Below are positions 14,685 through 47,159 of a DNA stretch of 64,000 nucleotides, piece by piece. The notes under the pieces are model-generated. The model saw only the letters and a list, made by a program, of their open reading frames with translations, was not told the DNA's origin and did not search any database. The position numbers and the translations under genes are program-made. Within the stretch, counting starts at the first letter, position 1. Each line of letters begins with the position of its first letter. The DNA is taken from assembly GCA_930367205.1 (NCBI GenBank), contig OV884009.1, positions 96,865,189 to 96,929,188 on the forward strand, given 5' to 3'. This DNA comes from Acanthosoma haemorrhoidale. Taxonomy: Eukaryota > Arthropoda > Insecta > Hemiptera > Acanthosomatidae.

Positions 14685-15574
14685 TGTTGGGTCCCAACTA
14701 TTTTTTTATTATTTTTTTTCACTCACGTAATTATAACGATTAATTTTATTTTATTTGTTAAAAAAAAAAAAAAAAAGACAAGATTGTATTATTTGTTGTA
14801 TTGATATGCATAATTAGTAATTAAGGTTGTTTACGTCTAAGCAAGTGATAAGGTGACCTCTAATGCGATCGGCAATTGTTTTGGCATGGCGGATCAACTC
14901 CGATCGTCATCTAATTACTGGCTCAGTTCCCTGAAAGTTGTGAATGAAGAAGGACGCTTGGAAATTTGTTGATTGATGTTGACCCCAGATTCACCCTACT
15001 TCTTCATCGCTGACTGTACACCGGACATCCACCACCCACCCACGCTCCCCATTGTTTGGAGAGTGAACATCGAGAAGAATTTTTCTTCTCCACTTTGGGA
15101 TCTCCGGTAAGCGGTTATTTTGATAGTACACACACCAATTATCTCCAGATTCAGCTCACATCATCCTTTCACTTGCAAAGAATAAAATATTATTGACTTT
15201 TGGTGATTGACAATGTTAAATTTAGTAAATATAGGATTTAATTAATTTTTATTTATACTAAAGCGTAAAGACATTTATATTTTGTTATCTATGTTTCTTT
15301 CATTTTATTTTTAGATTAATAACCCCGTTACTAACATTACTTTTTTTTGTTTATATATATACGATTATTACATATGTATTGCCAGTTTATAATTTTAGTT
15401 TTTTTTTTTGTATAATCTTTCCTCAATTATATTTTGTGTAAACAATCTTGTTTTTTGTTGTTTTTCTGGGAAAATGCAGGCATCCATTCTTGTACTTTTT
15501 TTCTGAATTTCACAGCCGGTAATTTGCAAGGGACAGAAGTTCGGCGACGTAATTTACTAGCCCCTTCTTCCACA
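14685..15574 (+). repeat. BEL-2 5' LTR
   Basis: 890 bp, TGTTGGGTCCCAAC at the start and CTTCTTCCACA at the end. It carries AATAAAATATT (about 15181) and AT-rich stretches. CTCCGGTAAGCGG (about 15103) and ATGCAGGCATCC (about 15475) resemble splice donor and acceptor sites, and BEL-type elements may splice their leader. That is inference. Confidence 0.96.
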
Positions 15575-15579
15575 TCTTT

Positions 15580-15597
15580 TGGTCCTCCGTGTTCGGA
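15580..15597 (+). other. BEL-2 putative primer-binding site
   Basis: TGGTCCTCCGTGTTCGGA lies five bases inside the 5' LTR. It begins with TGG, as needed to pair with the CCA end of a tRNA. Which tRNA was not identified. Confidence 0.6.
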
Positions 15598-15731
15598 TAT
15601 TGTGATTCAGAAAAAAGTAATTGTATTTACAACATTCCGTCTTGATCCTTTATATAATCATCTTCCCACTCACAAGATTTGTTTAATTTAATTGGTATAT
15701 TCTTTGTTTATTGCTAAATTTTGCCATCATC

Positions 15732-18700
15732 ATGCCTCCTAAAGTTAACCAGGATGATTCGGAAGAGCAAATGGATGCTCTTAGCGATGAATTCAAGGAC
15801 TTAGCTGATGATATTAATGAAACTAAGACCGTTGGGTTATCAATGGGAACTGACTCAACCAAACAAAAAATCTTCGCTGCTCGCATTTCTCGACTAGACA
15901 GTGCTTATGAGAAGTTTTCAGCGTGTTATTTGAACTTGAGAAGGGTAGTAAAAAGGTTAAAGAGGCCCTTAACAGAATACGAACTGGTTTATAAAGAAGT
16001 CCGTGCCAGCTATTACGAAGCGATAGCATTGGGTTTTTCTATTGCCCCTAAGGAATCGGAATCCACTGGAAATAGATCACTGGTTGAAAGAGGCGAAGAA
16101 TATTCGCAATTACGCCTTCCCACAATTAATATTCCTACTTTTTCAGGCAATATTTCAGATTGGCCTTCGTTTAAGGATACCTTTTCTTCCATGATTCATG
16201 ATAATACAGACTTGAATCCCATTCAAAAATTCCATTATTTGAAGTCCTCCCTAAAAGGTGGAGCGGCTCAAATTATCACGGCTATCAATGTCACTCTCGA
16301 CGGCTACGATCAAGCTTGGGCAGCTTTAACTAAAAGGTATGACAGCCAACGATTACAAGCCACCCACCATCTGATGAATATATTCAATTTTCCACCACTT
16401 CAAAAATGTTCCCTCGCAACTCTTGATCACTTTTCGTCAGTAATTCTTGAAAGCGCTGCAGCCTTTAATAGATTGAACTTAGCTGATCCCGCAGGCTTTA
16501 TATTGTACACGTTTGCCGTCAGGCTGTTAGATGCCAAAACTCGAGAGCGTTTCGAAAACGAATTTGGTTCCAGATCCGAAACTCCGACTTGGAAGGAATT
16601 TTCGGATTTTATCCACCAATTAATCATTCAGCTTCAAGCAAATACTATGACGTCAAATCAAAAAGCCACTCCAGCTAACAATGACTATAAATATACTCAC
16701 CAGGCAAAAAAGGTGTTGATGTCTTCCGGAGCAGTCACAAAACAATTTAAATGCCCCGTCTGTATGGAGAATCATAGAATTTATGATTGTCCTAAGTTTC
16801 GATCACTCTCTCCCAGACAAAGATTTGAAAAAATCAAATTGTTAAACCGTTGCCTCAACTGTTTTGCTTCAGGTCATTCAGCTTCGAAATGCCCCTCTAC
16901 CCATTGTTGCAAGCAGTGTCATTTACGGCACCATTCTCTTTTACATTTTTCGAAAGGTTCTGACACCCACTCCATATCAAATCGTAATCAAGGTCATTTC
17001 GTTTCTAGTGTACACTCATCACTGGGAACTCATTCATCTGAAAACTCTACAAGGAAATCTCACAATATACCCACACACTCCGAGTCTTCACAAATAACAA
17101 CCAATAGTCCCAACCCCCCAGCCGTACAAACATCCGTGTTGTCGTCGGCTTCGACAGAACGAATAAATGTTCTTTTGGGTACGGCTCTATTAAGGATTAA
17201 AGACTCCTTTGGTTGTTTCCAGTTGGTGCGAGCTCTAATTGATAGTGGGTCTCAACGCTCCTTTATCACCTCACAATGTGCAAGGCGATTACGTTTGCAA
17301 CTTATTCCAAATGATCATAATTTGGTTGGTTTTGGGAGCCATCCTATTTCTGGTTGTAAGCACCAAGTTTATTGCAGTATTTCTTCCAATAAGGTAGAAT
17401 CGCCAGCGCATCACACATACGCAATTGTGATTGATTGTATTAGCAACGAAATGCCCTGCGAAATCATCATGGATACGGTAGTCCAACATTATCAACATTT
17501 AGATCTTGCAGATCCAATGTTCAATCAGCCAGGGCCCATAGAATTTCTTGTTGGTGCTGATCTATTTGGGGAAATCTTGGAAGGAGAGGTAGTAAAATCA
17601 GCTCATGGATTTCCCAATGCCATAAAAACCACACTTGGTTGGATTTTATTAGGACCCATTACAACGGCAAATCCATTTCTCTGCAGCACTACCTTGCTCG
17701 CTAATTCTACACCTTCATCTGAATTTCAGGAGTTAACTCAGGTGATGACTCGTTTTTGGGAAGTCGAGGAAATAAATGATGTTCCGAGAAGCAATCCACT
17801 TGATATAAAAAGTGAGGATCATTTTAAAAGGACTCACTCTCGAACACCCTCCGGTAGATACATGGTCCGTTTACCCTTTAAAACGCAACCTCTCAACTTA
17901 GAAAGCTCCAGGTTCATGGCCTTAAAACGTTTTAAAAACTTGGAAACGAAATTTGAACGAGAACCATCCCTAAAATTGGAATATGGAAAGGTTTTCGAAG
18001 AATATTTAAAAAAATGTTATTTATCACCCAGTTCTCAAACGGGGAAATATTTTCTCCCGCACCACTGTGTATTAAAAAAGAGCACAAGTACTAAATTGCG
18101 TATAGTTTTTGATGGTTCGGCTACTACCGTTAATGGATCCCTCAATGACTACCTACTTTGTGGTCCTAAACTGCAACCTGAGATCACAGATGTATTGTTG
18201 AAATTTCGATTACCGCAAATAGTCATGACAGCCGATATCTGTCAAATGTATTTGCAGATTTTGATTGCCCCAGAGGATCGTTCCTATCTTCATTTATTTT
18301 TTAGAGCTGAAAGTTTCGATCACCTAGCCGAATTCGAATTTAATTGTTTACCGTTCGGACTTTCATGTTCTCCCTTTTTAGCAATTCGAGTAATACAACA
18401 ACTCGTAGCAGATGATGGAAACAAGTTTCCTAATGCGTCTCGAGCATTGTTAGAGGAAATGTATGTTGACGATTTATTGACTGGTGCTGATACGTTGGAA
18501 GAGGCACAGACACTTCAAAGAGAACTCGTAGCCTTGATGAGTCGAGGAGGTTTTCAATTGAAAAAGTGGTGCAGCAATGCAACGGAGCTCTTAGAACCAG
18601 TTTTGGTGAATGAGCCGAAACCCATGATCTCCTTAGCTAGTTTGGAAGATAACGTGGTGAAAATACTCGGAATGCAGTGGGATCCTCAACAGGATAATTT

Positions 18701-21014
18701 TACCTATCGAATACACTCAAGAGATTTGGTTTTAACTAAACGAGGCATCCTTTCAACCATTGCCAGGATGTATGATCCTTTAGGCTATTGCGCCCCAGTT
18801 ATCTTCAAAGCAAAGGCGATTCTTCAACTATTATGGTCAGAGAAACTCGATTGGGATGACCCAATTCCACCTGCTATTTCCAAGTCCTGGGAAATACTCT
18901 TTAAAGATCTGGCGCAATTAGAAGCTATTAAGATTCCCCGTGGTCTTAAACCACATTCCCCAGCAGAGATGTCTGTTGTGGGATTCGCTGACGCATCTTC
19001 TTTAGGTTATGCGGCAGTTCTCTATCTTCGTTCTCAGGATCAATTGGAAAGGGTAGACTCCCATCTGATGATCGCTAAAACCCGATTAGCTCCATTAAAA
19101 ACCCTCTCAATTCCAAGGCTTGAACTATGCGCTGCTCTACTTCTTGTCAACCTTTTGCGATCTGTTCAACTCATTACACAACGATTAAAACCAACCTCTA
19201 TTTTCTTGTTGTCTGATTCTTCCACCGTTTTATCGTGGTTAAATACACCTGTCCATCAACTGAAAACATTCGTGGCCAATCGAATAGTGAAAATTTTAGA
19301 TAACTCCTTTCTCCCTAATTGTCATCACATTCGTTCAGAAGATAATGCCGCTGACATTGCGTCTCGGGGAACTTCTCCATCAGACTTGGTCAATCATTCA
19401 GTTTGGTGGAAGGGACCTGACTGGATGAAGAAACCATTGTCGGAATGGCCATTAAATAAGCCAACCAAATCATCGAATTGTTCAGACTTACCTGAGACAA
19501 AACCAGTTTGTACTATCTTGGCTACCACAACCAATGCATCGTCTTTATTTGAAGTTATTGACGAATTCTCATCCTATTCCAAATTAATTAGGGTACTTGC
19601 ATATGTCCAACGCTTTATCGTAAATTCTCACCCTCATTCAACCAAGAGAAAAGGTCAATTAAGCTTAGAGGAACTTCGTCAAGCTACTCACACCTTGGTG
19701 AAAATAGTTCAAAGACATCATTTCCCCTCTGTAAGCTCCAAACCTTCTCTTATAACATCGCTAAAATCATTATCCGTTTTTATCGATTCTCGTGGAGTGT
19801 ACAGGGTGGGCGGTCGCCTCAGTAATGCCCCTATAAATTATGATGCTAAACATCCCGTGTTGTTACCCTCTAAATCACATTTTGTGGAACTACTTGTCGA
19901 CCACTACCATATTGTTTATTTACATGCAGGACATCAGCTCCTCCATTCAATACTACGTCATCATTATTGGATTATTTCAGCAAGACGTCTGATACGCACT
20001 CGAATTCACCGATGTTTGAAATGCCATCGCCTAAAAGTAAGACCTTATACACCTTACATGGGAAATTTGCCAATGTCAAGATTCGAGCAAGGCCGACCCT
20101 TTATCAATGTCGGGATTGATTTCGCTGGTCCATTCTCAATCCGTGAATCCTCTCGCCGTAAGGCTGCCCTTGGCAAAGCGTATGCCTGCTTATTTGTGTG
20201 CATGAGCACAAAGGCGTTGCACATTGAGATCGTGTCGCAATTGACAACAGTAGCCTTCTTAGCCTGTTTAGACAGATTTATAGCTCGACGAGGACTACCC
20301 AGCAGAATATTCTCCGATAATGGAACAAATTTTGTAGGAGCGTCACGACATTTAAAAGAGCTATACTCCTGGTGGAATACCTACTCCCTGAAAAAGGACA
20401 TCGAAAACTACTTCGTCAATCGAGAAATGAAATGGAGTTTTATCCCTCCATTCGCACCTCATTTCGGTGGTTTGTGGGAGGCTGGTGTGAAGTCGTTTAA
20501 GTATCACCTTAGGAGAGTAATGGATTGCCAACCCCTTACATTTGAAGAACTCTCCACCATCGCAAATCGCATAGAAGCGATTTTGAATTCTCGACCCATG
20601 CATCCTATGTCATCATCACCAGAAGACTTGGATGTCTTGACGCCGGGTCATTTCCTGATTGGTGCCCCTCTAGTTGCTCTGCCAGAACCAGAGTCAATCG
20701 AGCCATCGCGCCATCCAATCTCGAGATGGAATCTCATTCATCGCTGCATAGGCAATATTTGGAAACAATGGCGACGGGACTACTTACATTGCCTACAACA
20801 GCGTAGTAAATGGACTACTGAATCGGCAAATGTAAATATCGGCACACTTGTGCTTCTTATTGACCCTAATGTACCTCCCCTCAGTTGGCCTGTAGGGCGC
20901 ATTAAAGAAGTTTTTCCTGGACAAGACGGGATTGTCAGGGTAGTAAAGGTGAAAACCTCTACAAACGAGTATACCCGTTCCGTTACGCGCCTAGCTCCAT
21001 TGTTACCTCCATAG
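15732..21014 (+). CDS. BEL-2 Gag-Pol polyprotein (complete)
   Basis: One open frame of 1760 codons from ATG 15732. Visible domains (residues approximate): helical Gag N-terminus; DUF1759-like Gag (LPTINIPTFSGNISDWPSF, about 130-290); zinc knuckles (CPVCMENHRIYDC and CLNCFASGHSASKC, 340-400); DUF1758-like protease (ALIDSGSQRSFITS, near 500); RT with TADICQMYLQI and YVDDL near 910; Pao connection (ILSTIARMYDPLGYCAPVI) and RNase H (GFADASSLGYAAVLYL); integrase zinc finger (HAGHQLLHSILRHH, about 1397); and integrase core with D near 1460 (GIDFAGPF), D near 1527 (FSDNGTNF) and E near 1582 (GGLWEAGVKSF). A DUF5641-like C-terminus follows. All motifs checked are intact. It assembles particles, copies RNA to DNA and integrates it, so it may be competent. 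Confidence 0.96.
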   Translation: MPPKVNQDDSEEQMDALSDEFKDLADDINETKTVGLSMGTDSTKQKIFAARISRLDSAYEKFSACYLNLRRVVKRLKRPLTEYELVYKEVRASYYEAIALGFSIAPKESESTGNRSLVERGEEYSQLRLPTINIPTFSGNISDWPSFKDTFSSMIHDNTDLNPIQKFHYLKSSLKGGAAQIITAINVTLDGYDQAWAALTKRYDSQRLQATHHLMNIFNFPPLQKCSLATLDHFSSVILESAAAFNRLNLADPAGFILYTFAVRLLDAKTRERFENEFGSRSETPTWKEFSDFIHQLIIQLQANTMTSNQKATPANNDYKYTHQAKKVLMSSGAVTKQFKCPVCMENHRIYDCPKFRSLSPRQRFEKIKLLNRCLNCFASGHSASKCPSTHCCKQCHLRHHSLLHFSKGSDTHSISNRNQGHFVSSVHSSLGTHSSENSTRKSHNIPTHSESSQITTNSPNPPAVQTSVLSSASTERINVLLGTALLRIKDSFGCFQLVRALIDSGSQRSFITSQCARRLRLQLIPNDHNLVGFGSHPISGCKHQVYCSISSNKVESPAHHTYAIVIDCISNEMPCEIIMDTVVQHYQHLDLADPMFNQPGPIEFLVGADLFGEILEGEVVKSAHGFPNAIKTTLGWILLGPITTANPFLCSTTLLANSTPSSEFQELTQVMTRFWEVEEINDVPRSNPLDIKSEDHFKRTHSRTPSGRYMVRLPFKTQPLNLESSRFMALKRFKNLETKFEREPSLKLEYGKVFEEYLKKCYLSPSSQTGKYFLPHHCVLKKSTSTKLRIVFDGSATTVNGSLNDYLLCGPKLQPEITDVLLKFRLPQIVMTADICQMYLQILIAPEDRSYLHLFFRAESFDHLAEFEFNCLPFGLSCSPFLAIRVIQQLVADDGNKFPNASRALLEEMYVDDLLTGADTLEEAQTLQRELVALMSRGGFQLKKWCSNATELLEPVLVNEPKPMISLASLEDNVVKILGMQWDPQQDNFTYRIHSRDLVLTKRGILSTIARMYDPLGYCAPVIFKAKAILQLLWSEKLDWDDPIPPAISKSWEILFKDLAQLEAIKIPRGLKPHSPAEMSVVGFADASSLGYAAVLYLRSQDQLERVDSHLMIAKTRLAPLKTLSIPRLELCAALLLVNLLRSVQLITQRLKPTSIFLLSDSSTVLSWLNTPVHQLKTFVANRIVKILDNSFLPNCHHIRSEDNAADIASRGTSPSDLVNHSVWWKGPDWMKKPLSEWPLNKPTKSSNCSDLPETKPVCTILATTTNASSLFEVIDEFSSYSKLIRVLAYVQRFIVNSHPHSTKRKGQLSLEELRQATHTLVKIVQRHHFPSVSSKPSLITSLKSLSVFIDSRGVYRVGGRLSNAPINYDAKHPVLLPSKSHFVELLVDHYHIVYLHAGHQLLHSILRHHYWIISARRLIRTRIHRCLKCHRLKVRPYTPYMGNLPMSRFEQGRPFINVGIDFAGPFSIRESSRRKAALGKAYACLFVCMSTKALHIEIVSQLTTVAFLACLDRFIARRGLPSRIFSDNGTNFVGASRHLKELYSWWNTYSLKKDIENYFVNREMKWSFIPPFAPHFGGLWEAGVKSFKYHLRRVMDCQPLTFEELSTIANRIEAILNSRPMHPMSSSPEDLDVLTPGHFLIGAPLVALPEPESIEPSRHPISRWNLIHRCIGNIWKQWRRDYLHCLQQRSKWTTESANVNIGTLVLLIDPNVPPLSWPVGRIKEVFPGQDGIVRVVKVKTSTNEYTRSVTRLAPLLPP

Positions 21015-21048
21015 TGTGTTAATCTACCTGGAAATTTTCTACGCAAAT

Positions 21049-21060
21049 TTGGTGGGCGGT
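21049..21060 (+). other. BEL-2 polypurine tract
   Basis: TTGGTGGGCGGT directly before TGTTGGG of the 3' LTR. A G-rich GGGCGG(T/A) tract is usual for BEL/Pao. Confidence 0.75.
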
Positions 21061-21061
21061 A

Positions 21062-21951
21062 TGTTGGGTCCCAACTATTTTTTTATTATTTTTTTTCACT
21101 CACGTAATTATAACGATTAATTTTATTTTATTTGTTAAAAAAAAAAAAAAAAAAGACAAGATTGTATTATTTGTTGTATTGATATGCATAATTAGTAATT
21201 AAGGTTGTTTACGTCTAAGCAAGTGATAAGGTGACCTCTAATGCGATCGGCAATTGTTTTGGCATGGCGGATCAACTCCGATCGTCATCTAATTACTGGC
21301 TCAGTTCCCTGAAAGTTGTGAATGAAGAAGGACGCTTGGAAATTTGTTGATTGATGTTGACCCCAGATTCACCCTACTTCTTCATCGCTGACTGTACACC
21401 GGACATCCACCACCCACCCACGCTCCCCATTGTTTGGAGAGTGAACATCGAGAAGAATTTTTCTTCTCCACTTTGGGATCTCCGGTAAGCGGTTATTTTG
21501 ATAGTACACACACCAATTATCTCCAGATTCAGCTCACATCATCCTTTCACTTGCAAAGAATAAAATATTATTGACTTTTGGTGATTGACAATGTTAAATT
21601 TAGTAAATATAGGATTTAATTAATTTTTATTTATACTAAAGCGTAAAGACATTTATATTTTGTTATCTATGTTTCTTTCATTTTATTTTTAGATTAATAA
21701 CCCCGTTACTAACATTACTTTTTTTTGTTTATATATATACGATTATTACATATGTATTGCCAGTTTATAATTTTAGTTTTTTTTTTGTATAATCTTTCCT
21801 CAATTATATTTTGTGTAAACAATCTTGTTTTTTGTTGTTTTTCTGGGAAAATGCAGGCATCCATTCTTGTACTTTTTTTCTGAATTTCACAGCCGGTAAT
21901 TTGCAAGGGACAGAAGTTCGGCGACGTAATTTACTAGCCCCTTCTTCCACA
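21062..21951 (+). repeat. BEL-2 3' LTR
   Basis: 890 bp and essentially identical to 14685-15574; only two homopolymer lengths differ on reading. Followed by target duplication GATAG. Confidence 0.96.
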
Positions 21952-21956
21952 GATAG

Positions 21957-22126
21957 AGTCTAGAAAGGAAATGAATTGGGAGTCGGAAATGGATTTATTG
22001 GAGGGCAGTACACTGATGCTAGTGTAAGGGGAAAAGTAAAGGTGGTGATCGACACTGCAGTGGATTGAATTATTGAGTTATGGACAATGACAGCGGAACC
22101 TGCATGAGCTGTTCCATGTGGGTGAT
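21957..22126 (-). pseudogene. LINE-1 ORF2, second piece: middle of endonuclease
   Basis: The minus strand reads HPHGTAHAGSAVIVHNS, the Jockey-type endonuclease motif in which a G-T/R-A-H-G/A-G-S-A-V/I stretch precedes the strand to the next catalytic residue. It is bounded by the BEL-2 duplication on the left and the AdV-1 duplication on the right. The homologous stretch in LINE-2 lies at 56110-56300. Confidence 0.8.
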
Positions 22127-22132
22127 TAGTTC

Positions 22133-22455
22133 AGTACTACAGAAAGGCGGGTTGAGCATGAGCAAGAAGGAGATGACCTTGAAGGGTGTCGTATCGCGTT
22201 ATCGCATGACCTTGAGGTCATTGAACATCTTTGGCAGGAAAGGGGGGTGTATTTTTAGGAAAGGGGGTGTGTCCTTGAGAGGTGATAAGAGTTGATGAGT
22301 GTGGCAAGAGGGTAGGGGAATGTGGGGAATGTGGGTAGGGGAAACTGTGTCTTTAATCTCAGGGCGTCTCTTCTTTCAATTAGTTCAAGATGTGTAAGCG
22401 AACAGATTGGAGCCTGAGGTATGAGAATGATCGTCTGTCTACATTTGTTGGATGG
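22133..22455 (+). repeat. AdV-1 left terminal inverted repeat
   Basis: Matches the reverse complement of 28612-29100: GGCGGGTTGAGCATGAG, GAAGGGTGTCGTATCGCGTT, GAGAGGTGATAAGAGTT and TCTTTAATCTCAGGGCGTCT are shared. A segment of about 170 bases present in the right repeat (about 28740-28915) is absent here. The repeat runs into the first ~60 bases of the BIR gene. Confidence 0.9.
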
Positions 22456-22698
22456 TCTTCACTGGTGAGCGCCGTTAGGCTTGCATCAGCAGGATTTTAT
22501 TATTTGAAAAAATCAGACCGAACAAGGTGTCCTTTTTGTGGAGTAATATTACACGAATGGTTGGTACATGATTGTGATGTAGATCACAAGAAATGGGCTA
22601 AATATTGTCTGTTTATCGAGTACTTGGAACAACTGGAGAAGCTACCATTATTAATAATATATGAAGTTGATAATAAAAAAGAACAGGAAAACAGCTAA
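22390..22698 (+). CDS. BIR-domain (IAP-like) protein of AdV-1
   Basis: 102 residues with one baculovirus IAP repeat. RLSTFVGW (residues 15-22) is the R-x-x-TF-x-x-W entry, then LASAGFYYLKKSDRTRC with the G-F-Y-Y signature. The zinc ligands Cys47, Cys50, His66 and Cys73 are present (C-x2-C-x15-H-x6-C; the canonical gap is about x16). A hydrophobic helix-like tail (LEQLEKLPLLII) follows; no RING finger. BIR proteins bind caspases or other partners and commonly block cell death, or act in other ubiquitin-linked roles. The viral-element context suggests host-response control, but that is inference. The frame is intact. The gene's first ~20 codons lie in the left inverted repeat, so the right repeat has a decayed copy of this start. 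Confidence 0.82.
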   Translation: MCKRTDWSLRYENDRLSTFVGWSSLVSAVRLASAGFYYLKKSDRTRCPFCGVILHEWLVHDCDVDHKKWAKYCLFIEYLEQLEKLPLLIIYEVDNKKEQENS

Positions 22699-22699
22699 C

Positions 22700-22831
22700 A
22701 TGCGTAAGAGGTTTACACGTTTTATTCAAGAACATTCACATTTAAAAAACCAAATAGTTATGAAATATAAAAAAAAAACAGATAAATCAACTAGTAAAAA
22801 AAATAGAAAAACTTCATTTATTATCTGTTAA
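22700..22831 (+). CDS. Small basic protein, AdV-1 accessory (hypothetical)
   Basis: 43 residues starting MRKRFTRFIQEH, strongly basic (Lys/Arg-rich KKKTDKSTSKKNRK). The ATG is 1 base after the BIR stop codon. No family is recognised; it could be a nucleic-acid-binding peptide or a chance frame in A-rich DNA. Confidence 0.3.
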   Translation: MRKRFTRFIQEHSHLKNQIVMKYKKKTDKSTSKKNRKTSFIIC

Positions 22832-22860
22832 ATATTTTAGTCTCGTTGAAGCCAAGCAAG

Positions 22861-23082
22861 ATGGAGGGTCCACGACGATTGGAACTAGTGACTGATTACC
22901 ACATCACTTGTAGCAAACTAGTCCGAGCCGGTCTTTGTGATTTTGTGCCCACTGTCGCTGTCATCGACAAGAGAACTACAGTGTATATGGATACAGAAGA
23001 ATGGAAACCAAGTTCCAAGGATGTTGTCTCTTTTGCAAAGCAGGCCCAAGAAAGTGGAGGTCGAAGACTGAGTAGGTTGTAA
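22861..23082 (+). CDS. Hypothetical AdV-1 accessory protein
   Basis: 73 residues from ATG 22861 (MEGPRRLELVTDYHITCSKL). The preceding TATTTTAG at about 22834-22843 resembles a splice acceptor, so the transcript may be spliced. Composition looks like a real globular protein (mixed charged and hydrophobic residues, VPTVAVIDKRTTVYM), and it lies in the same direction as the BIR gene. No known family is recognised. Confidence 0.45.
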   Translation: MEGPRRLELVTDYHITCSKLVRAGLCDFVPTVAVIDKRTTVYMDTEEWKPSSKDVVSFAKQAQESGGRRLSRL

Positions 23083-23125
23083 AAATGTAAATTGCATATT
23101 TTCCACGAGAGGGAGGAACAGGATC

Positions 23126-23443
23126 ATGAAAATTGAACAGGTAATTCTTTGTTTCACAATGTTTAACTAGAGTCCATCAACCCTTCAGGTGAATACTCCT
23201 TCGGCATGTTTAAACAAAACTGATGTGACAAAGCTTTATAGAGAAGTTAAGAAAATCAACGACTCACTGGACTTGATAACCAAGATGGTTGTACTTTATA
23301 AGAAACATGAAGAAGGTGGAGAACCTGTGGAATCTACATCAATGGACTTTAATATTAATATTAATACCCTTTTTCATAATTTAAATGAACTCAAGAAACT
23401 GTGTAATAATACCCACATAAATTGTAATTTGAACTATATTTAA
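23126..23443 (+). CDS. Hypothetical AdV-1 protein, possibly two exons
   Basis: The open frame at 23189-23443 has no ATG at its beginning; a stop lies at 23168. However, ATGAAAATTGAACAG (23126-23140) is followed by GTAATT and, 48 bases on, by CCCTTCAG immediately before 23189. Joining across this small candidate intron (23141-23188) keeps the frame. The main exon encodes a mostly helical, Leu/Lys-rich protein (KLYREVKKINDSLDLITKMV and LFHNLNELKKLC), probably coiled coil. Function unknown. Spacing and orientation match the other accessory genes at this end. Confidence 0.45.
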
Positions 23444-23513
23444 TAAATAATTGTTATGTCTATACATTTTTTTTTAAACTTTTCCCTAAGCAAAAAGGAG
23501 AATAAAGGTATAA

Positions 23514-23735
23514 TTAATAATTAATATATTCATTGAGGTATGAGTTTCTTCGTTTCTGGATAAATTCCTCGTCCTCTCGCCATTCCTCAGGTAAGTTGTC
23601 CCAGATGTAGTCTAATGTGTAGTCGAAAAGGTACAAAAGTAATGATCGAGGTAAAACTCTCAATTCTTCAGTAGTTAAAGTTTCGATACCTTCCTCTCTC
23701 AAACGACGCATCACCGACTCCATTCTATCCATCAT
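23514..23735 (-). CDS. Small acidic hypothetical protein (AdV-1)
   Basis: 73 residues, MMDRMESVMRRLREEGIETL at the start and LPEEWREDEEFIQKRRNSY near the end. Highly charged and helical; no known family recognised. Convergent with the plus-strand accessory genes and just downstream of the zinc-binding protein relic on the same strand. The frame is intact. Confidence 0.45.
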   Translation of the reverse strand: MMDRMESVMRRLREEGIETLTTEELRVLPRSLLLYLFDYTLDYIWDNLPEEWREDEEFIQKRRNSYLNEYINY

Positions 23736-23759
23736 ACTAAAGCAAGTTTTTTTACTAGG

Positions 23760-24360
23760 AGGTATTTATAAATTCCCCTCCTCCTCAAACCACAAACACT
23801 GAGGACTATTTTTTTATGGTAGCTGAGAGGGTTGACTAATGATTTTCTGTCAAATACCAGTCCACAGTATACACACTTAACTCTATCCTTGACTCCTCGA
23901 ATAATTCCAGCATATTAAAGCAGATGATGAGGTGAGCCAATGTTTTTAAATGTTTGCCTTCTTATCTCTTCTTTTTTCAAATCTACAGCTTCAGAATTTT
24001 TTCCGACCCATGCAGCCAGACGACGAGCTTGATTTAATGAACAAACAAAGGAAATGTTTAAATGAAAATGACAAGTCATCTGGTCATTATCTAATTGTTT
24101 CAAGTTTGGACAGCCGAAATCATGAAGATCATAGACTGATTTATCAATGAGCTCTTCTATAAACTTCCACTTTTCCATTCCTTTGGCCCATAATATATCA
24201 TAGTCTTCTGTAGCCTATATTAAGAAATACTTCATATCTTCATATTGTACATCGCCATAGTCCTGTCCCATTCCAATCCATGAATATGCTTTTTTACCCA
24301 AAGATTTGTTTTCGACTGACTCACTTCTTAAAGGTCTTAAGGTGGTTTAAAAACCAATGC
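23760..24360 (-). pseudogene. Zinc-binding, BIR-like protein relic (AdV-1)
   Basis: The minus strand encodes SLGKKAYSWIGMGQDYGDVQ, then after an in-frame TAG, DYDILWAKGMEKWKFIEELI and NQARRLAAWVGKNSEAV. After a TAA it continues AGIIRGVKDRVKCVYCGLVF with a later YH and C. The pattern C-x2-C-x15-H-x7-8-C resembles the zinc core of a BIR domain, and the G-V-K-D-x-V-K-C approach is also BIR-like, though the upstream part is not. At least two nonsense codons make it a pseudogene. I recognise no named family for the N-terminal part. Confidence 0.5.
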
Positions 24361-24584
24361 CATGATGGACCATGGCTGAGTGAGATGATAGATAGTTCTT
24401 TAACAATTAATGAGTTAGAAGCCATCCGATAGCCCTGAAAATCAATGACCGCCGAACGCATCTTATGGTTTACGGTCCTACGGTGAAGTGAGATTATTGC
24501 ACTAGATAGAATAGCTATATATACACGTAGGTGGAATCAGTACATTTTACGGACCAAACCCGTCCCCACTTCATATTCTACTAT

Positions 24585-25752
24585 TTAATCATGAAGAATG
24601 AGACAGTATGCCTTGGTATTAGCAGAAAATGTCTCACTCGCCTCTAGTTGAAGGCGAATATCAATAGTCGTACTCATTATCGCGTCAGATTGTTTAGAAC
24701 AATCTATAACAACTATAGGTGCTAGGATCTCAAAATCGCATCGTGACAACAAAGGTTAAGAATGTCTATTGCCATAATAACTCGTTTGAAATTCTTTATA
24801 CATTTCGTAGAGGAGAGCCACTTTTCCAAGCTCGAAATCTATATTCAAATCATCATTAGGATATTGCTCACTATTCAGATAGAGTTTCAAAATTTTCAAT
24901 TACTACAATGCAACTTTCAAACTGACTGTTATCTTTGCTAGCGTTTCTCATTCGATTTGTCTGGAATGCGATAATAACATACCATGGGTTTTCTAAATTT
25001 GTCGATGTTTTTACAGTCCAGTTTTCTTGCTGCGATGCAGGTAAATTAGGGTATTCGTAAAGATCACATGATTTGAATGGAATAGAGATGACCTTGTTTT
25101 TATCAACCATTTTTAACAACCTAAGTCGATCAGAAACACGAACATGAGGCATTTTCCAAATCACATTATCTAATTTTATTAGTACATCATCATCACCCTT
25201 TAAGCAGTTAAAGTCAGTACTCGATATGATCAAAACGAGTTCTTGCTTAAGATTAATTAAAATTTTTCGATAGTCCTCACGTATATTTAAGAGAATATTC
25301 AGTGGCAGACACAGACTAAAAAAACCATTTTTATCTATTGAAAGAGTTTTGTCCGCACCTGGGATTACCCATCCTGCATTTTCTAGACCTTTGACTTGAT
25401 TAGGTGAAAAAGACGCATGGCCTTTAAGCGTTGTAGTTATTCCTGGGCTCCTCACTCTATCAACTTCAATGCCATTCAATTCATATCTGATCTCATCAAA
25501 CAAAAACGCAAACGCGTTATTAGTCAATTTTGAAGCAGTTCCAGCAGTACCATTCTTTTTTGAAATTCGTCCTTCCAGATAAACAAAACTTAATGAAGGA
25601 ATCGTATAAACATCTTGTTGATGGATCAGTATTCTGATTTCATCAGACTTGTTAAGGGTGTTCCCCACATACGGTTGATGTGAATGATATTGAAATTGTG
25701 TAAGAGATTCTTCAAATTTTACGTCTGATGTAATGTTTAGCATGTTATTCAT
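24585..25752 (-). pseudogene. Major capsid protein (double jelly-roll type) of AdV-1, frameshifted
   Basis: From ATG 25752 the protein has FDEIRYELNGIEVDRVRSPG followed by further strand-rich sequence, and WYVIIAFQTNRMRN near the end of the first frame (stop at 24871). The homologous reading then continues in another frame (SEQYPNDDLNIDF, ALLYEMYKEFQTSYYGN), passes a TAA at about 24755 and finishes with AYCLILHD at 24585. This resembles, from memory, the hexon-like major capsid proteins of Polinton/adintovirus elements of insects, about 390 residues here. It would build the icosahedral shell. One frameshift and one stop disable it. Upstream gene on the same strand: penton-like protein. Confidence 0.7.
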
Positions 25753-25908
25753 TTTTTTCTTATTTATAACCGAAAACCACACTGTTTTAAAAAGTTAGCG
25801 TTTGCAGTTGTTAACGGTCTCGTCGATATAGGTTTACTAATTCTTAACTGGGTATGACATCTCCTTGTATAACAAGCTCCAACTCGCACACAACTCTCTC
25901 TGGTAAAA

Positions 25909-26615
25909 TCAATCCCCATTCTTCTTCAAATGTATTCTCAATGTAACAGTTTCTCCCTTAAAGTCAATAAGCTCACCGTTCTGATCCACTAAGCGAACGG
26001 TAATATTGTCAACAGTCCTCACGTTAGTAGGAAAGTAAATGACGGGATTCGGGGTTTCTACTATTTTATATCCTTATTCAACAGTCGCAAAGAATTGATG
26101 TATGCTATGATCTGGCTCCCCGTTTACGTAAGACCCTGATGCGATGTTACAATGTATCGAAATAATGTTTACGGAAAGGATTTTTACAATTCCATCTGAT
26201 TCAGTATACCGGTTTACTGGGTGTATCACACGATTTGGAATATTAAAACCCAAAAGTGGGCCAATGGAATGTGGCTTATCGGGAAAGTTGAAGTAAACCG
26301 GTTTAAGTGTTATAAGTTCCACCTTTAAAGTACTCCGATTTCCCTAAGTACAAACCCAGCTCTCGGGTCTTGGTGTATAATTTCTTCGTAAAGAAAAGTA
26401 TTTAGAGCACCGATATCATACGATTCCTCAGGTATCTGGATCGTCAGATTTCCAAAATAAAACTTATCGTTAACATCCTTCCTTACATTAGGAATAGTAT
26501 TATATGTGTCAAAAGATAATAATCCAACGGTATAACTTGATCCTTATGCTAGCAGAGGTAAAAAGTTCGCATGAAGAACACTAGAATCGCCTGTAAGCGC
26601 TACTGTGTAGCTCAT
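25909..26615 (-). pseudogene. Penton-like minor capsid protein of AdV-1
   Basis: ATG 26615 starts MSYTVALTGDSSVLHANFLP, then after a TAA at about 26545, LLSFDTYNTIPNVRKDVNDK and FYFGNLTIQIPEESYD. After a TAA and frameshift near 26330, the reading continues VYFNFPDKPHSIGPLLGF, VNIISIHCNIASGSYVNG and NITVRLVDQNGELIDFKGE. AdV-2 carries the same N-terminus at 49089. This strand-rich protein next to the capsid gene fits the penton (vertex) protein of adintovirus/Polinton-type elements. The assignment rests on gene order and remembered family similarity. Broken by at least three mutations. Confidence 0.62.
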
Positions 26616-26657
26616 GAGTATGAATGATCAAAATTTATGAGAAACGTCGGCTAAACT

Positions 26658-27010
26658 TTAAACTTTAAACTTTAAGCAGAGATGTCCGCAAATCGGAGTA
26701 TTCCACTTCTGATAACAACGTCTGTTGTAAGTTATTTGTAAACCTTTAAAGGAATCAAGTAGCTGTGGTGGTGGTTTCAAATTACCAAACGAATCAAAGT
26801 ATTTTACAAGATTATCTTTTTTTATATAACAAACCCAATGAGAACCAGGTTCTGAACTAGTATGCAAATTTACAATAGCTTTCTCATGCTTTTTTGGATA
26901 TTTAGGGAGACTATCAATCATAAATAGTCCCCGAAAATTTTCAGTATTCAAAACTTTAGCTATATAATTTAATTCAAGATCGGTCAACGGTTTATTCGGC
27001 AGTCATATTT
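26658..27010 (-). pseudogene. Adenain-like cysteine protease of AdV-1
   Basis: Encodes FRGLFMIDSLPKYPKKHEKA, PGSHWVCYIKKDNLVKYFD, SFGNLKPPPQLLDSF and NTPICGHLCLKF. The His of SHWV, the acidic residue of YFDSFG and the Cys of CGH match the adenovirus-protease (C5) catalytic set, with N-x-x-x-x-Q/Y-Q-like spacing before the Cys. The family matures virion proteins. The frame starts without an ATG: an in-frame TGA sits just before LPNKPLTD at about 27005, and an ATG lies in another frame at about 27020, so a small indel at the start is likely. Lies between the core-like and penton-like genes, as in AdV-2. Confidence 0.78.
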
Positions 27011-27023
27011 TTCTCGGCCATTT

Positions 27024-27260
27024 TTATCGGTTTATAAACAGCCCGTAACCATTCCTATATGGTTTCAAAAAAAGTCCATTACCAACTTTCTGACCTTCTA
27101 TAGCCAAATTATGTCTCTTTTGCTCATCCAATTTTAGCTTGGCTTCTTTAGCCTCATTGATCGCTTTCGCTACACTTGCAGCTCCTCCTGCCAAAGAATC
27201 TACAGCGGAAAGTCCTGCCATCAACGGTACAATCTGAAGCTTTAACTCTTTTCCAAGCAT
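27024..27260 (-). CDS. Virion-core-like small protein of AdV-1
   Basis: 78 residues: a hydrophobic Gly/Ala stretch (LAGGAASVAKAINEAKEAK), a charged linker (KLDEQKRHNLAIEGQKVGNG) and a Gly/Tyr tail (LFLKPYRNGYGLFINR). AdV-2 encodes the same order (48503-48718: LDELKRHNLAMEAQKIGKG, then LYLKPYRKGHGMF), so the family is conserved between two independent elements. A membrane-active or DNA-condensing minor virion protein, comparable in role to adenovirus pVI/pX, is a guess from position and composition. The frame is intact, and the start overlaps the end of the PLA2 gene region within a few bases. Confidence 0.6.
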   Translation of the reverse strand: MLGKELKLQIVPLMAGLSAVDSLAGGAASVAKAINEAKEAKLKLDEQKRHNLAIEGQKVGNGLFLKPYRNGYGLFINR

Positions 27261-27267
27261 TATCAGC

Positions 27268-27501
27268 TTAGATTTTGTCCGCTTCCTTACGACTATCCAT
27301 ATCTTTATATTTGCTATAAGCTATCTCGTGATCATTACAGGCTTTATCAAGCTGATTTATTCCACTATCACCTTTAGTTAGTCGCTTTTCTAGATCCGTA
27401 CCAGGACCACAATAATGATACCCCGGAATATGTGATTCAATAGGCAACTTGTTTATAAAACTGTTCACTAGACCTGTTCCTTTGTGAGCTATACGAATCA
27501 T
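27268..27501 (-). CDS. PLA2-like protein (parvovirus VP1-type) of AdV-1, likely truncated
   Basis: Residues 20-60 read HIPGYHYCGPGTDLEKRL, GDSGINQLDKACNDHEIAYS. The YCGPG calcium loop and the D-x-A-C-x-x-H-(D/E) helix are characteristic of the phospholipase A2 fold used by parvovirus VP1 to pass membranes, and PLA2-like proteins are also known from adintovirus-type elements. Here the Asp after the catalytic His is Glu (NDHEIAY), while AdV-2 keeps HD. The frame ends soon after (KEADKI), whereas AdV-2 continues with a basic region, so the C-terminus may be lost. ATG 27501 is about 15-35 bases downstream of a TATA-rich element on its own strand. Confidence 0.75.
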   Translation of the reverse strand: MIRIAHKGTGLVNSFINKLPIESHIPGYHYCGPGTDLEKRLTKGDSGINQLDKACNDHEIAYSKYKDMDSRKEADKI

Positions 27502-28064
27502 ACTGTACTAATTTCATTCTTATATAAATATATATATACTGAAGCATAATGCCATCGTTTGCATTCAGAATGAAATTAGTCTAGTAAATGTTTATCTTTT
27601 TGGAAAAAGATTACATTAGCCTTTACACCCGCTGACTGCACTATCTATTCAAGGGTGCACTAAGTAATCTATTCTCACACGGGCTATCGTTCACCCGTTT
27701 GAAACCAGCACTCAACTTACACAGCAGTAAGGTCAACATTGCGCTATTTAATCTAACTATTCATTACATGAGCTCTAAGAAGACTCACACAGGACAGCAC
27801 TCTGGTTCTTGCAGCCTAGTCAAAACCCCCCGCTGCACACAGCTTAGTCAGCATTGCGCTATCTAGCGCAGCCTTATATATACGGATCGTTTCATCACAC
27901 GAGCTCTCATTCACTCGTTTGCTGACGTATTACTTATTACCATATAATTGTATTGTTCATAGCTGCTTCAGTTCTCCTTGCAGCCATTGTAAGTAAGTCT
28001 TGGGATTGTTATATCATTATTCTCTTGCACCACTAAATACCTAAGCAAATAATATGAGTTTTAG
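27502..28064. promoter_or_regulatory. AdV-1 divergent promoter and control region with internal repeats
   Basis: Separates the minus-strand structural genes from the plus-strand small gene. Leftwards, TATATATATATTTATATAA (27515-27535, minus strand) precedes the PLA2 ATG. Rightwards, TATATATA at 27875-27882 precedes a possible leader with donor GTAAGT at 27989 and acceptor GTTTTAG before ATG 28065. Imperfect direct repeats occur: CATTGCGCTAT at about 27741 and 27852, and CACACGRGCT-TC-TTCAC-CGTTT at about 27686 and 27896. Such repeats may bind a regulator or serve as replication signals; not known. Confidence 0.5.
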
Positions 28065-28307
28065 ATGTCTCTCCTTAAAAAATTGAATGAAATTAATCCC
28101 CTAAACATTGGTGAATTGACTATTAGACGGACATACAAGGTAATAAAACTGAGCAAAAAGGAGACAGAATATGGCCCATCTATTGAGGCCATAATAGAAG
28201 ATGATGAAGAAGGAAAAGTGTGAACCTTCCTACCAAAACGATACATATATGCGTTCACTGAGGAAGAATTAGCAAGCTATAGATGTACAGTATATTTAAA
28301 TATATAA
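28065..28307 (+). pseudogene. Small conserved-looking AdV-1 protein with one in-frame stop
   Basis: 80 codons from ATG 28065: MSLLKKLNEINPLNIGEL, TYKVIKLSKKETEYGPSIEA, then TGA at 28221, then TFLPKRYIYAFTEEELASY. The layout (short L-N-E-L lead, Y-x-I/V-x-x-x-x-x-x-T-x-Y/F-G-P strand pair, FLPKR, T-E-E-E) is one I associate with small proteins from insect virus-like elements that may have an OB-like nucleic-acid-binding fold. That recollection is not firm. TGA sits where a neutral residue would be expected between two strands, so this is probably a recent nonsense mutation. A candidate leader intron (27989-28064) ends exactly at the ATG. Confidence 0.5.
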
Positions 28308-28611
28308 TAAATATAGTATTTTTTTTAATTAGCTAAGTGATTATTCTTGTTTTTAGGAGAGCTGAAATTTCAATACCTCAGAAAAAAGAAAAATGCATAT
28401 GACATTAAATTCAAATAGTTGATGCATTTTATTTAGGAGGTGTTTACTATTATTTTATATTTTTATTATTTTGGTTTTGGCTTTGTATATTTTAGTGTCA
28501 AGGAGTAAAAATGAATAGTAAAAGCAACGCAAATAATTATTTATGTGATCAATGTGGATTATTAGTAGCAAATAGAAGACACAGATGTAAATGGTTGCTT
28601 TTCTATTGTCA
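28308..28611. other. AdV-1 AT-rich interval with a small possible zinc-finger frame
   Basis: Mostly AT-rich. A 59-codon frame (28511-28690) encodes YLCDQCGLLVANRRHRC, two Cys pairs with an interposed His, and runs into the right inverted repeat. Too short and too unlike known families to call a gene with confidence. Confidence 0.25.
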
Positions 28612-29100
28612 AGACCATCCAACAAATGTAGACAGAAGATCATTCTCATACCTCAGGCTCCAACCTGTTCACTTACATATCTTGAACTAATTGAAAGAAC
28701 AGACGCCCTGAGATTAAAGACACATTTTCCCCCACCCACATTACTGCCATACTACAGCTGACCCCAAGAAAAAGCCGCGGCTTGGGCGGAACTATAAATG
28801 ATAAAGAAGATTTCAGCTTGCCACACCTCATATTGCGTCACAAGGTCACTGTACGGCACAAGGACACCCCCCATGCGATGTTGTCAAATCTACATTGCAG
28901 GATTGCCACATCTACCATCTAGCGGCTCTAGACACACTCATAACTCTTATCACCTCTCAAAGGCACACGCCCTCCCCTAAAAATACACCCCCCCTGCCCT
29001 GCTAAGGATGGTCAATGGCCTCAAGGTCATGTGATAACGCGATACGACACCCTTCAAGGTCATCTCCTTACTCATGCTCAACCCGCCTTTATTTACTACT
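28612..29100 (-). repeat. AdV-1 right terminal inverted repeat
   Basis: Reverse complement matches 22133-22455. It holds about 170 extra bases (about 28740-28915, including GCCGCGGCTTTTTCTTGG on minus), so either the left repeat lost them or the right gained them. Its inner end contains, on the minus strand, a decayed version of the first ~20 codons of the BIR gene, with the start region reading ATATGTAAG, which gives an immediate stop. Confidence 0.9.
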
Positions 29101-29106
29101 CAGTTC

Positions 29107-29278
29107 AATAAGTTTGGTACTGTCGAACGGTAAATGGTCGTTTACTCGTAAGTCTTGTTTCAGTAATGAGAGCTACGTCGATGTTTTTGTCGTGGAGTAG
29201 TACTGTCAGTTCGTTAGCCTGGGTGCGAACACCATTCCCATTCCAAAGGAGAATGGATAAGGAGTAGGAAGGATCCAC
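29107..29278 (-). pseudogene. LINE-1 ORF2, first piece: start of endonuclease
   Basis: The minus strand reads SYSLSILLWNGNGVRTQA then LLHDKNIDVALITETRLTS, the conserved opening of Jockey-type AP endonuclease (N of LLWNxNG and E of ALITET are catalytic). The first codon of the homologous frame is GTG at 29278 rather than ATG. It ends with an in-frame TGA next to the AdV-1 insertion. ORF1 ends 13 bases upstream. Confidence 0.85.
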
Positions 29279-29291
29279 TTATGGATTTTGT

Positions 29292-30560
29292 TTAACAGGG
29301 ATAAGGTAGGAGACAAGATTTGTAAGAAAGGAAATGAGAGGGGTAATTAGGGTTCTGAACTCTGTAAGGAATGAGGTTAATAGGCTGGTGAGATCCACTG
29401 GAAGGTGGAGGAATATCCGAGATGTGTGGTTGAGGATGGGATTGAGCTTGAGGGTTAACGGGATGAATGGAATGCTGGGAAAGGTGATCTTGCGGACAGG
29501 AATTGGGTGGTGCCTGTGACTGCTCTCTGTTGCGAACAGCATCGGCGAAAGAGACAGAAGGCCTCAAATTTCTGGCTGGACCGCTTCTTGTTACTAGTTT
29601 TTCCTCTTCTGGCTGACCACGTTGTTCTGTCCTGGACTTCAGCGTTCTGTAGGCCTTGCAGCCCTTGTAGTTGGCCGGATGTCCTAGCTGGCAAAGCACG
29701 CATACCGCAGGCGATTTCAGGGGCTTTTTGCATAATTCGCTTTTGTGCTGCCCACTGCACTTTACACACCTTGGAGGGTGGTGGCAGTAAGATTTTGTGT
29801 GCCCATATGCCTGACAGTTATGGTACTGGACAATATGGCGTTTGGGATACGGTTTTTCAACCTGTACCCTTGTGTAGTACAGGTTTGTTAGATCATATAT
29901 TTTCTCGACTTTAGGTGGCCTCTCGAGATCAACAAAGAACAGTGGTAATTCTGTTTTTATTGTTTCATCCTGTTGCCTATCCTCACGCAACACGTTTGTT
30001 ATTTTGCGAACTTTGTATCCGAGAGCTATGAGTTCTTCTTTTATTTCGTCAGCTGGTGTGGTTGGGTACAAATTTCTGATCACGACTCGGAGTGATCGTT
30101 CCTGCTTTAATTGGTAGGTGTGGAAGTCTGCATTGGTTTCATCCAAATATTTAACAATCGCTCGATAAGTATTGGGAGTGTCTGGGGAAATTTTTGTATC
30201 CCGAGAGCGATTGAGGCACGTATATTTTCCGGTACCTACAATTTTGCTCATTTGTGAGCATATTAATTTAAAGTTGCTAATGTTGCATACAAATATAGCA
30301 GGCGGCTTGGGCTGTGTTGGAGTTTTGTTGACTTCCATTTCTTCTGCTGGGATATTTTTCAAAGCCTCAAATGTGTTTGGCGTGAAAAAAGGCGACTCTA
30401 TGGCGGTTTCTTTTTTGGATGTGCTGGCCTGTGATGGAACTAGCTGCAGAGGAGGCCATTTGTACGTTCTTATTCAACGTTCTTATGGTTTTCGCTTTAC
30501 AGGTGACGGTGTAGGAGTTGGACCTAGTGACCTTGATCTTTTTTTTTTATTTTGAGACAT
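29292..30560 (-). pseudogene. LINE-1 ORF1: Gag-like nucleic-acid-binding protein
   Basis: The first ATG (30560) gives MSQNKKKRSRSLGPTPTPSP, a basic Ser/Thr/Pro-rich start that hits a stop after 25 codons. The homologous reading resumes around 30450 in another frame and is open to 29292. It includes a domain with LRVVIRNLYPTTPADEIKEE (RRM-like/PRE_C2HC type of Jockey ORF1) and three knuckles (QYHNCQAYGHTKSYC, CVKCSGQHKSELC, CVLCQLGHPANYKGC). It would coat LINE RNA and assist target-primed integration. One early frameshift is the main lesion. Confidence 0.85.
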
Positions 30561-41010: not shown

Positions 41011-41572
41011 TATACTGTGTATATATATATATAAAAGTTAAAGTCCGGGTACCACCAGTGGTCCACCTTAACCCCCAAACTTCGAGATGTAAACATCCCG
41101 AAAATATGTATGGAGGATTACTTGACCGAATAAACTAGTCTTGCTTTCACATTCGTTGTTGTTCTTTTACTTTTCCTTTCTATTTTTTTTAGTATAATTC
41201 AACAAACATTATCGTTGGTGGATAAGTTTGATTAGAAAAAATAAAGAAAAGAGGGGAATGAACGACACTCTCAAGCTGTTGTAAAAGACTGCTTTATTCT
41301 CTCTAGTAATCCGACAGATATAGCCCAAGGAGGAGAGTTTGAAAGTACACGTAGATGGGAGGATGCCGCGAGAATACGAGGAAAATAAATAAATGAGGTG
41401 TGACCTCATAGGAAGAGTAGAAGCACGAGTGAGGTGCAGAGAGGGAACGGGATCTGTTAGGCTGGGGAACAAATCATGCTGGTGTACGGAAGCCGTGAGG
41501 GATGGTAATGCGAGAATCGGGGCAATTAATCGGCAGGACTGGACAGGTTTTAGTCGCCGACCTCGTGAGTAA
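41011..41572 (-). other. LTR-like fragment and flank left of AdV-2
   Basis: The minus strand of 41195-41320 contains AGAGAATAAAGCAGTCTTTT and GAGAGTGTCGTTCATT, matching 53130-53240 (plus strand), which reads AGACAATACAGCAGTCTCTT and GAGAGTGTCGTTAATT. Both look like the U5 end of a Gypsy LTR. AATAAACTAGTCTTGC at about 41130 on the plus strand could be another LTR end. No coding sequence. Confidence 0.4.
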
Positions 41573-44500: not shown

Positions 44501-44770
44501 AAAAAGGGCTTATTGATAAAACGGTCCAAAGGGATAAAAAAATGTGCAGTTGGAGAATTCACCTTTAAAAATTACCCAGATACTAAAAGGAATTATGACT
44601 CGATGCATAGCCAATTTCAAATCATTCAATCAAAAAGACATCACGGTTTTATTTAATAAAAAGTCCCTCTGTCCATATGATGATAAACGTCATGCAGTGG
44701 ATACACCTCCTTATGGCCATTACACAATGAAGTGGCATAATGATGTAGTATGTAGTAATGAGTCAAACTA
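41573..44770 (+). pseudogene. PolB-type (protein-primed) DNA polymerase relic of AdV-2
   Basis: Pieces in order: FEAKGSGWSLV then KYKPLSGKQFIKLPKGIENK (N-terminal region conserved in Polinton PolB); KIVAYTDFECYLE at 42420 (exonuclease motif, D-x-E); SLPELSYEAMLETTNIED and FIENGIRGGIALVVKRHAK (43430-43570); YLIYPDVNNLYGYAM near 43640 (polymerase motif A, D-x-N-N-L-Y-G); [24 protein letters not shown] region at 43980-44040 (motif B area); INLCYIDTDSLLCLI at 44305 (motif C, DTD); and EYVGLRPNTYSFVT near 44465. At least ten stops or frameshifts. Protein-primed replication of linear element DNA is the family's role. Confidence 0.85.
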
Positions 44771-44962
44771 GGTAATAATAGTATATTGTAAGGTAAATAA
44801 AATGAACACGATAGTTATGTAAAAAGAAATCACCATTTATTAATTTAGTTAGTTAACAATTTAGTTATAGTAATAGTGTCATTAAAGTAATTCATATATA
44901 ATAATATGCTGCCACATGTATAAAATAAAACGCATATAGTAAGAACTTGTCTTTTTATTTGG

Positions 44963-45960: not shown

Positions 45961-46013
45961 CTAGTTCGCCGTCATGACGTCGGCCAGTGACCTAATTACT
46001 GGATAGGATAAGT

Positions 46014-47102: not shown

Positions 47103-47159
47103 TTCCTAATGACTCGTATGCTCTGCACGCAGGTCTTTTATAAGTCTACAATAAACGTG

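What the first reader, a model, noticed from the sequence alone, without database searches (positions are those of the whole stretch)
22133..29100. TIR- and TSD-bounded 7-kb Polinton/adintovirus-type element with a virion gene block but no PolB or integrase
Ends (AG..., long inverted repeats, 6-bp duplication with one mismatch) are those of a genuine integration, yet only structural and accessory genes are inside. AdV-2 shows that the related lineage has PolB, integrase and ATPase. So AdV-1 may be a deletion derivative mobilised in trans, or a virus genome split over segments.
Basis: partly seen in the sequence, partly recalled or inferred. Interest (0 to 1): 0.85.

Follow-up and report, generated by a model that had tools for sequence, protein, structure and literature searches.

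The report
End-duplicated defective Maverick virus fossil
A 7-kb viral fossil in an animal chromosome is a rearranged, shortened copy of a larger integrating virus whose right end looks like an inverted copy of its left end, which suggests that a defective viral genome was integrated.

Summary
Window 22133-29100 is a 6,968-bp unit with inverted ends. An uninterrupted copy of the same LINE elsewhere shows the empty site, so the 6-bp target duplication is real. Inside is a decayed virion block (double jelly-roll capsid, penton, adenain-type protease, PLA2) and a BIR gene; no integrase, and only the first ~34 codons of the polymerase reading frame. The deletion-derivative reading is largely right; a genome segment is not supported. 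Three relatives of 12.9-15.5 kb, read to their right ends, carry the same block followed by PolB, integrase and ATPase. No second copy of AdV-1's breakpoint appeared among the 40 of 289 candidates scored. New: this is not a plain internal deletion. AdV-1's right arm carries the start of the left-end BIR gene, absent from the 16 right ends read. Its right end is thus an inverted copy of a left end, joined to the broken polymerase frame at a 3-bp microhomology. The inner arms share no changes and differ about as much as separate copies do, so the structure is about as old as the family. Best reading: a copy-back defective genome integrated in trans. Early chromosomal repair is the main rival.

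The parts
22127..22132 (.). left copy of 6-bp target-site duplication (TAGTTC)
   Evidence: empty site in L028 shows CAGTTC
22133..22462 (+). left terminal arm; tip AGTACT; runs into the BIR gene; 163 bp shorter than the right arm
22390..22698 (+). BIR (inhibitor-of-apoptosis type) gene at the left end
   Evidence: ORF; Pfam PF00653 6.7e-14
22807..23443 (+). two small reading frames of unknown function, kept in relatives
23514..24536 (-). broken conserved reading frames of unknown function; 23732-23914 is a weak, sub-threshold BIR match
   Evidence: BIR 0.0038, below cut-off; kept in relatives
24540..25752 (-). major capsid protein, double jelly roll, found in two pieces
   Evidence: Pfam PF21738 1.6e-57; relative P0001 79-82%
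25912..26615 (-). penton protein, found in two pieces
   Evidence: relative P0206 76-84%; its model matches mavirus penton 6g41 E 9.5e-9
26631..27002 (-). adenain-type maturation protease, decayed
   Evidence: relative P0121 82%; its model matches adenovirus proteinase 1nln E 3.2e-7
27024..27507 (-). unknown reading frame plus PLA2-like domain (27268-27507)
   Evidence: Pfam PF08398 5.9e-12
28065..28223 (+). small reading frame kept in relatives
28511..28613 (+). stump of the polymerase reading frame, about 34 codons, presumed N-terminus of PolB
28608..28613 (.). breakpoint between polymerase stump and inverted left-end copy; shared AAG
28608..29100 (-). right terminal arm, read as an inverted copy of a left end; 28608-28705 is BIR-gene start
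29101..29106 (.). right copy of target-site duplication (CAGTTC)
21963..22132 (-). LINE flank, left side
   Evidence: joined-flank translation; L028 copy
29107..29400 (-). LINE flank, right side

Best explanation
AdV-1 is an integrated, non-autonomous derivative of a Maverick/Polinton-type (adintovirus-like) virus family that invaded this genome. SHOWN: a 6-bp TSD in a LINE; a virion block shared with longer relatives; the polymerase frame cut after about 34 codons; the right arm carrying left-end sequence; the breakpoint seen once among scored candidates. INFERRED: during protein-primed replication a nascent strand that began at the left end left its template in the polymerase gene, paired at AAG with left-end sequence and copied back to the tip. 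This gave a genome with a left end on both sides, hence two working termini, which an integrase supplied by a full-length relative inserted into the LINE. It then decayed in place.
For: In the 8 of 20 fetched copies whose alignment reaches the point, the sequence runs on past 28613. Junction query: 41 hits, 40 of 289 candidates scored; only AdV-1 spans the joint, 30 hits end on the polymerase side, 10 start on the arm side and all 10 are left ends. None of 16 right ends read (14 if three with one flank count once) has the BIR start; 23 of 48 pieces found with a normal right end run from the tip towards the ATPase gene. Timing: in the 135-bp inner arm, left and right each depart from the majority of 20 relatives at 4 sites (one of the right's is at the junction), none in common; they differ at 8 sites, the relatives' mean being 8.4 (range 0-20). 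Tips and 6-bp TSD are as described for vertebrate Mavericks (PMC8097293 passages). A mirror-image copy with two right ends exists (L043, 4,163 bp).
Against: L043 has no TSD, so it does not show integration of end-duplicated genomes. The outer arms of one copy resemble each other, so the left or right origin of AdV-1's outer right arm cannot be told. Each genome search scored 40 candidates only, so another end-duplicated copy or an unusual right end may be missed. A 3-bp microhomology is weak. Early chromosomal repair, or repair with another copy as donor, would leave the same sequence. Two of the three complete relatives (L009/L029, L014/L030) lack a TSD and may be recombinants.
Confidence: 0.6

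Rival explanations
1. A full-length element was integrated first. Later a break removed PolB to ATPase; the surviving right repeat used a left end as repair template, copied a little way into the BIR gene and was joined to the polymerase stump (abortive gap repair).
For: Explains a right arm with inner left-end sequence and a microhomology joint; L022 is a near-palindromic copy whose outer arms are 98.7% alike, closer than separate copies are, so fold-back rearrangement or conversion in the chromosome may occur.
Against: None of the left arm's 4 departures is in the right arm, so copying from this left arm must have been early; needs loss of several kb ending near the repeat.
Confidence: 0.27
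2. Plain internal deletion of a lineage whose terminal repeats were longer and reached into the BIR gene at both ends.
For: Repeat lengths vary: in six copies the right-left similarity of the terminal blocks ends at left positions between 342 and 435, apart from a further short match in L017.
Against: None of 16 right ends read has the BIR start; all 10 arm-side hits of the junction query are left ends.
Confidence: 0.1
3. AdV-1 is one segment of a virus with a divided genome.
For: Bidnaviruses, which carry an adintovirus-type PolB, can have up to twelve segments (PMC11071296 passage).
Against: Virion and replication genes lie on one element in relatives; the breakpoint was seen once; the unit ends in a truncated polymerase frame.
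Confidence: 0.01
4. The ends belong to an unrelated DNA transposon that captured virion genes.
For: None found.
Against: The same kind of ends bound copies with PolB, integrase and ATPase frames; Pfam names PolB in L009 (4.4e-10) and rve in L018 (9.5e-9).
Confidence: 0.01

Closest known systems
Maverick/Polinton elements
   Same: AGT-type tips, long inverted repeats, 6-bp TSD, DJR capsid, penton, adenain-type protease; PolB, rve integrase and ATPase-like frames in relatives from the same genome
   Different: AdV-1 itself has only a stump of the polymerase frame, no integrase, no ATPase, and left-end sequence at both tips
Adintoviruses
   Same: adenovirus-like virion genes with PolB and rve integrase in relatives
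   Different: OTU-like PolB N-terminus not seen in two N-terminal pieces scanned; chromodomain only a weak sub-threshold match
Internally deleted, trans-mobilised DNA transposons
   Same: short copies with both ends; L017 (1,085 bp, perfect TSD) fits this
   Different: AdV-1's right end carries left-end sequence
End-duplicated defective DNA virus genomes
   Same: one end replaced by an inverted copy of the other: cytomegalovirus Towne and AD169 variants (PMC2885757, start of abstract in the listing); adenovirus left-end symmetric forms (recalled, no call)
   Different: those are laboratory strains; this is a chromosomal fossil

Membership tests
Maverick/Polinton | 6-bp target-site duplication | tested here: met
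   empty site in another LINE copy; AdV-1 5/6; of 9 tip-to-tip copies 3 perfect, 3 at 5/6 (AdV-1 included), 3 none
Maverick/Polinton | terminal inverted repeats with AG/AGT tips | tested here: met
   motif in PMC8097293 passage
Maverick/Polinton | protein-primed PolB | tested here: not met
   only the first ~34 codons of the polymerase frame in AdV-1; PF03175 in relative L009
Maverick/Polinton | rve integrase | tested here: not met
   no significant match of relatives' integrase pieces in AdV-1; rve present in relative L018
Maverick/Polinton | DJR capsid, penton, protease | tested here: met
Adintovirus | PolB with OTU-like N-terminus | tested here: inconclusive
   two N-terminal pieces of L009 scanned, no OTU match
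Adintovirus | integrase with C-terminal chromodomain | tested here: inconclusive
   Chromo E 0.024, below cut-off, in relative L016
Non-autonomous derivative of a TIR element | ends match longer relatives in the same genome | tested here: met
Non-autonomous derivative of a TIR element | same deleted form present at several loci | tested here: not met
   junction seen once; 40 of 289 candidates scored
Segmented virus | recurrent separate unit with its own complete genes | tested here: not met

The most novel reading that the evidence does not exclude
The genome is an archive of defective genomes of a Maverick virus: copy-back forms with two left ends (AdV-1) or two right ends (L043), fold-back palindromes (L022) and mini-forms (L017) were made by protein-primed replication outside the chromosome and integrated in trans, perhaps acting on later infections as inherited defective-interfering elements.
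Probability: 0.25. Interest if true: 0.7.

Novelty: new variant of a known kind. Interest (0 to 1): 0.5.

Why it matters
Whether animal Mavericks replicate outside the chromosome as linear genomes with two ends is, to my knowledge (recalled), mostly inferred from gene content. A breakpoint in which one terminus is replaced by the other is the kind of scar expected from such replication, and it can be looked for in any genome rich in these elements. Four searches for deleted, defective or fold-back Polintons (I saw listings, and passages of two listed papers, PMC6431247 and PMC8097293) showed no report of end-duplicated forms; most subscription journals are not in that library.

Tried and rejected
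The viral-contig scan with the capsid piece gave no relative. PDB sequence searches gave no match for the capsid and only what look like chance matches for the protease; PHROGs, four proteins, gave one weak match at E 0.13. In AdV-2 no inverted ends stood out among the repeats listed. Outer arms could not tell a left from a right origin. Unrelated transposon: not supported. Segment: not supported. A naming of the 23915-24536 frame as an exonuclease was only a recollection and is not claimed; Pfam found nothing in the two pieces scanned.
Full report
What was checked. The window lies in contig C6 of an 865.6-Mb assembly of 72 contigs. Inverted arms 22133-22462 and 28608-29100 were found. The flanks belong to one LINE on the minus strand (jockey-like by eye); joined with one copy of the 6-bp duplication they read in a single frame with two stops. 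A second copy of that LINE, in L028:4490-5004, crosses the site without interruption and has GAACTG once, which is the right-hand duplication CAGTTC in reverse. The left-hand TAGTTC therefore probably differs by one later change. By my arithmetic 5 or more of 6 matches would occur by chance in 0.46% of cases.

Genes. Pfam, run on 10 of the 51 frames listed (plus one more), finds BIR at the left end, a double jelly-roll capsid and PLA2. The protease and penton were found by homologs; alignments of 30 of 85 and 42 of 120 listed homologs gave models with pLDDT 92.4 and 90.8 that match adenovirus proteinase and mavirus penton. The models are of database relatives P0121 and P0206, 82% and 76-84% identical to AdV-1. 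Capsid and penton fall into two pieces each in that comparison. Polymerase, integrase, conserved-frame and ATPase pieces of L009, L016, L018 and AdV-2 were searched against AdV-1: only the first 37 residues of the polymerase-start frame match (97%, E 1.1e-20); other matches of these gave E 0.069 or worse.

Relatives. A search with the left end gave 76 pieces, 40 of 319 candidates scored; by position these are 40 left-end places, AdV-1 included. I read 20 of the other 39 over 10 kb. Order from the left tip in the fuller copies: BIR, two small frames, the virion block on the minus strand, two plus-strand frames, PolB, integrase, another conserved frame, ATPase, right end. Three copies were read to the right tip: L009/L029 12,944 bp, L014/L030 15,142, L026/L031 15,532. 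Two more have both tips mapped but were not read through: L011/L034 19,861 and L025 20,034. Lengths include any nested insertions. A fourth continuation, L032 behind L027, showed no right end and no gene match in 8 kb. L026/L031 and L011/L034 have perfect TSDs; L009/L029 and L014/L030 have none and may be recombinants. Short copies: L017 1,085 bp (TSD 6/6), L023 2,644 bp (5/6, with an inverted inner segment), L028 7,736 bp (5/6, with a nested LINE). L012 is left out of the TSD count because its ACCATT also follows right ends L036 and L037 elsewhere on C2. Over aligned parts AdV-1 differs from the 20 copies by 5.1-9.3%, with one outlier, L028, at 14.6% over 529 bases.

The junction. In eight relatives the bases before 28613 are nearly those of AdV-1 and the frame goes on; in AdV-1 the next bases are the inverted left end. 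AAG is shared by both sides; GTxAAG is 5 of 6. A query across the joint gave 41 hits, 40 of 289 candidates scored: AdV-1 alone spans it, 30 end on the polymerase side (query positions 124-135) and 10 start on the arm side, all at left ends known, AdV-1's own included. The BIR start was absent from the 16 right ends read in letters: L017, L023, L028, L029, L030, L031, L034-L038, L040-L042 and the two of L043. L036, L037 and L041 share or nearly share a flank and may be duplicates; L023's right end is of uncertain type. Ten of these right ends (L034-L038, L040-L042 and both of L043) came from a search with a normal right end, so they are not a random sample. Twenty-three of the 48 pieces of that search run from the tip to the end of the query, next to the ATPase gene.

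Timing. Over the inner 135 bp the two arms of AdV-1 differ at 8 sites; 20 relatives differ by 8.4 on average (range 0-20). Each arm departs from the majority at 4 sites, none in common; some of these states also occur in one or two relatives. If the right arm had been copied late from this left arm, shared changes would be expected. This favours formation at about the time of the family's spread, but repair soon after integration, or from another copy, is not excluded.

Other end-duplicated or folded copies. L043 (C6:127672160-127676322) has right-end sequence at both tips: 834 bp inverted at the left, arms 92% alike, with integrase part, conserved frame and ATPase between; flanks AACATC and TTCTCA do not match. 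L022 folds back within the polymerase frame; its second arm lacks the outer 765 bases. L044, at C2:146667369, goes from the terminal repeat straight into the capsid gene, a plain deletion. These show that such forms exist in the family, not how they arose.

Mechanism and its limits. Maverick PolB is described as protein-primed and the tips are expected to serve that start (PMC6431247 passages; PMC8097293 passages). Copying back from the left end gives a molecule with two proper termini, which could replicate and integrate with enzymes from a complete virus. The replication and trans steps are inferred. Whether such genomes ever interfered with the virus is unknown. Incomplete adenovirus particles are reported to hold left-end DNA (PMC5033970 and PMC12090768 passages); that they also hold inverted left-end duplications is recollection.

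Verdict. A real, well-bounded integration; the derivative reading stands at about 0.95, the left-end origin of the inner right arm at about 0.9, and formation before integration at about 0.6.

Noticed in passing
window 41499-49286: AdV-2: a more distant, decayed relative with PolB-like (+), integrase-like (-), conserved (-) and ATPase-like (-) frames, then protease and penton pieces (+). Pfam gave no match above cut-off in nine of its pieces; no inverted ends stood out. The order differs from the AdV-1 family.
   Followed up: partly
G000 contig C6: 26 of the 40 best-scored left-end places lie on C6, which is 15% of the assembly (counted; binomial tail 9e-13). The 40 are those most like AdV-1, itself on C6, so this is a biased sample. 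C6 may be a sex chromosome; not tested.
   Followed up: no
L022 (C6:79025909-79035908): Near-perfect palindrome of a family copy folding back within the polymerase frame; outer arms 98.7% alike, inner part 93.5%.
   Followed up: partly
L036, L037, L041 and L012 (C2, 8.64-9.10 Mb): Right ends L036 and L037 share one flank, L041 nearly so; it begins with the six bases left of L012, suggesting segmental duplication of one insertion.
   Followed up: no
window 15416-21955: What looks by eye like a BEL/Pao-type LTR element with a 1,775-residue open frame, next to the LINE; no family search was made.
   Followed up: no
P0001, P0121, P0206: Homologs of capsid, protease and penton of 402, 115 and 235 residues, 82-84% identical to their queries, are listed from a source given as lgn without organism name.
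   Followed up: no
window 27468-27622 and right ends of relatives: A short stretch with a stem-loop before the PLA2 gene recurs close to the ATPase gene of relatives, perhaps a shared promoter.
   Followed up: no
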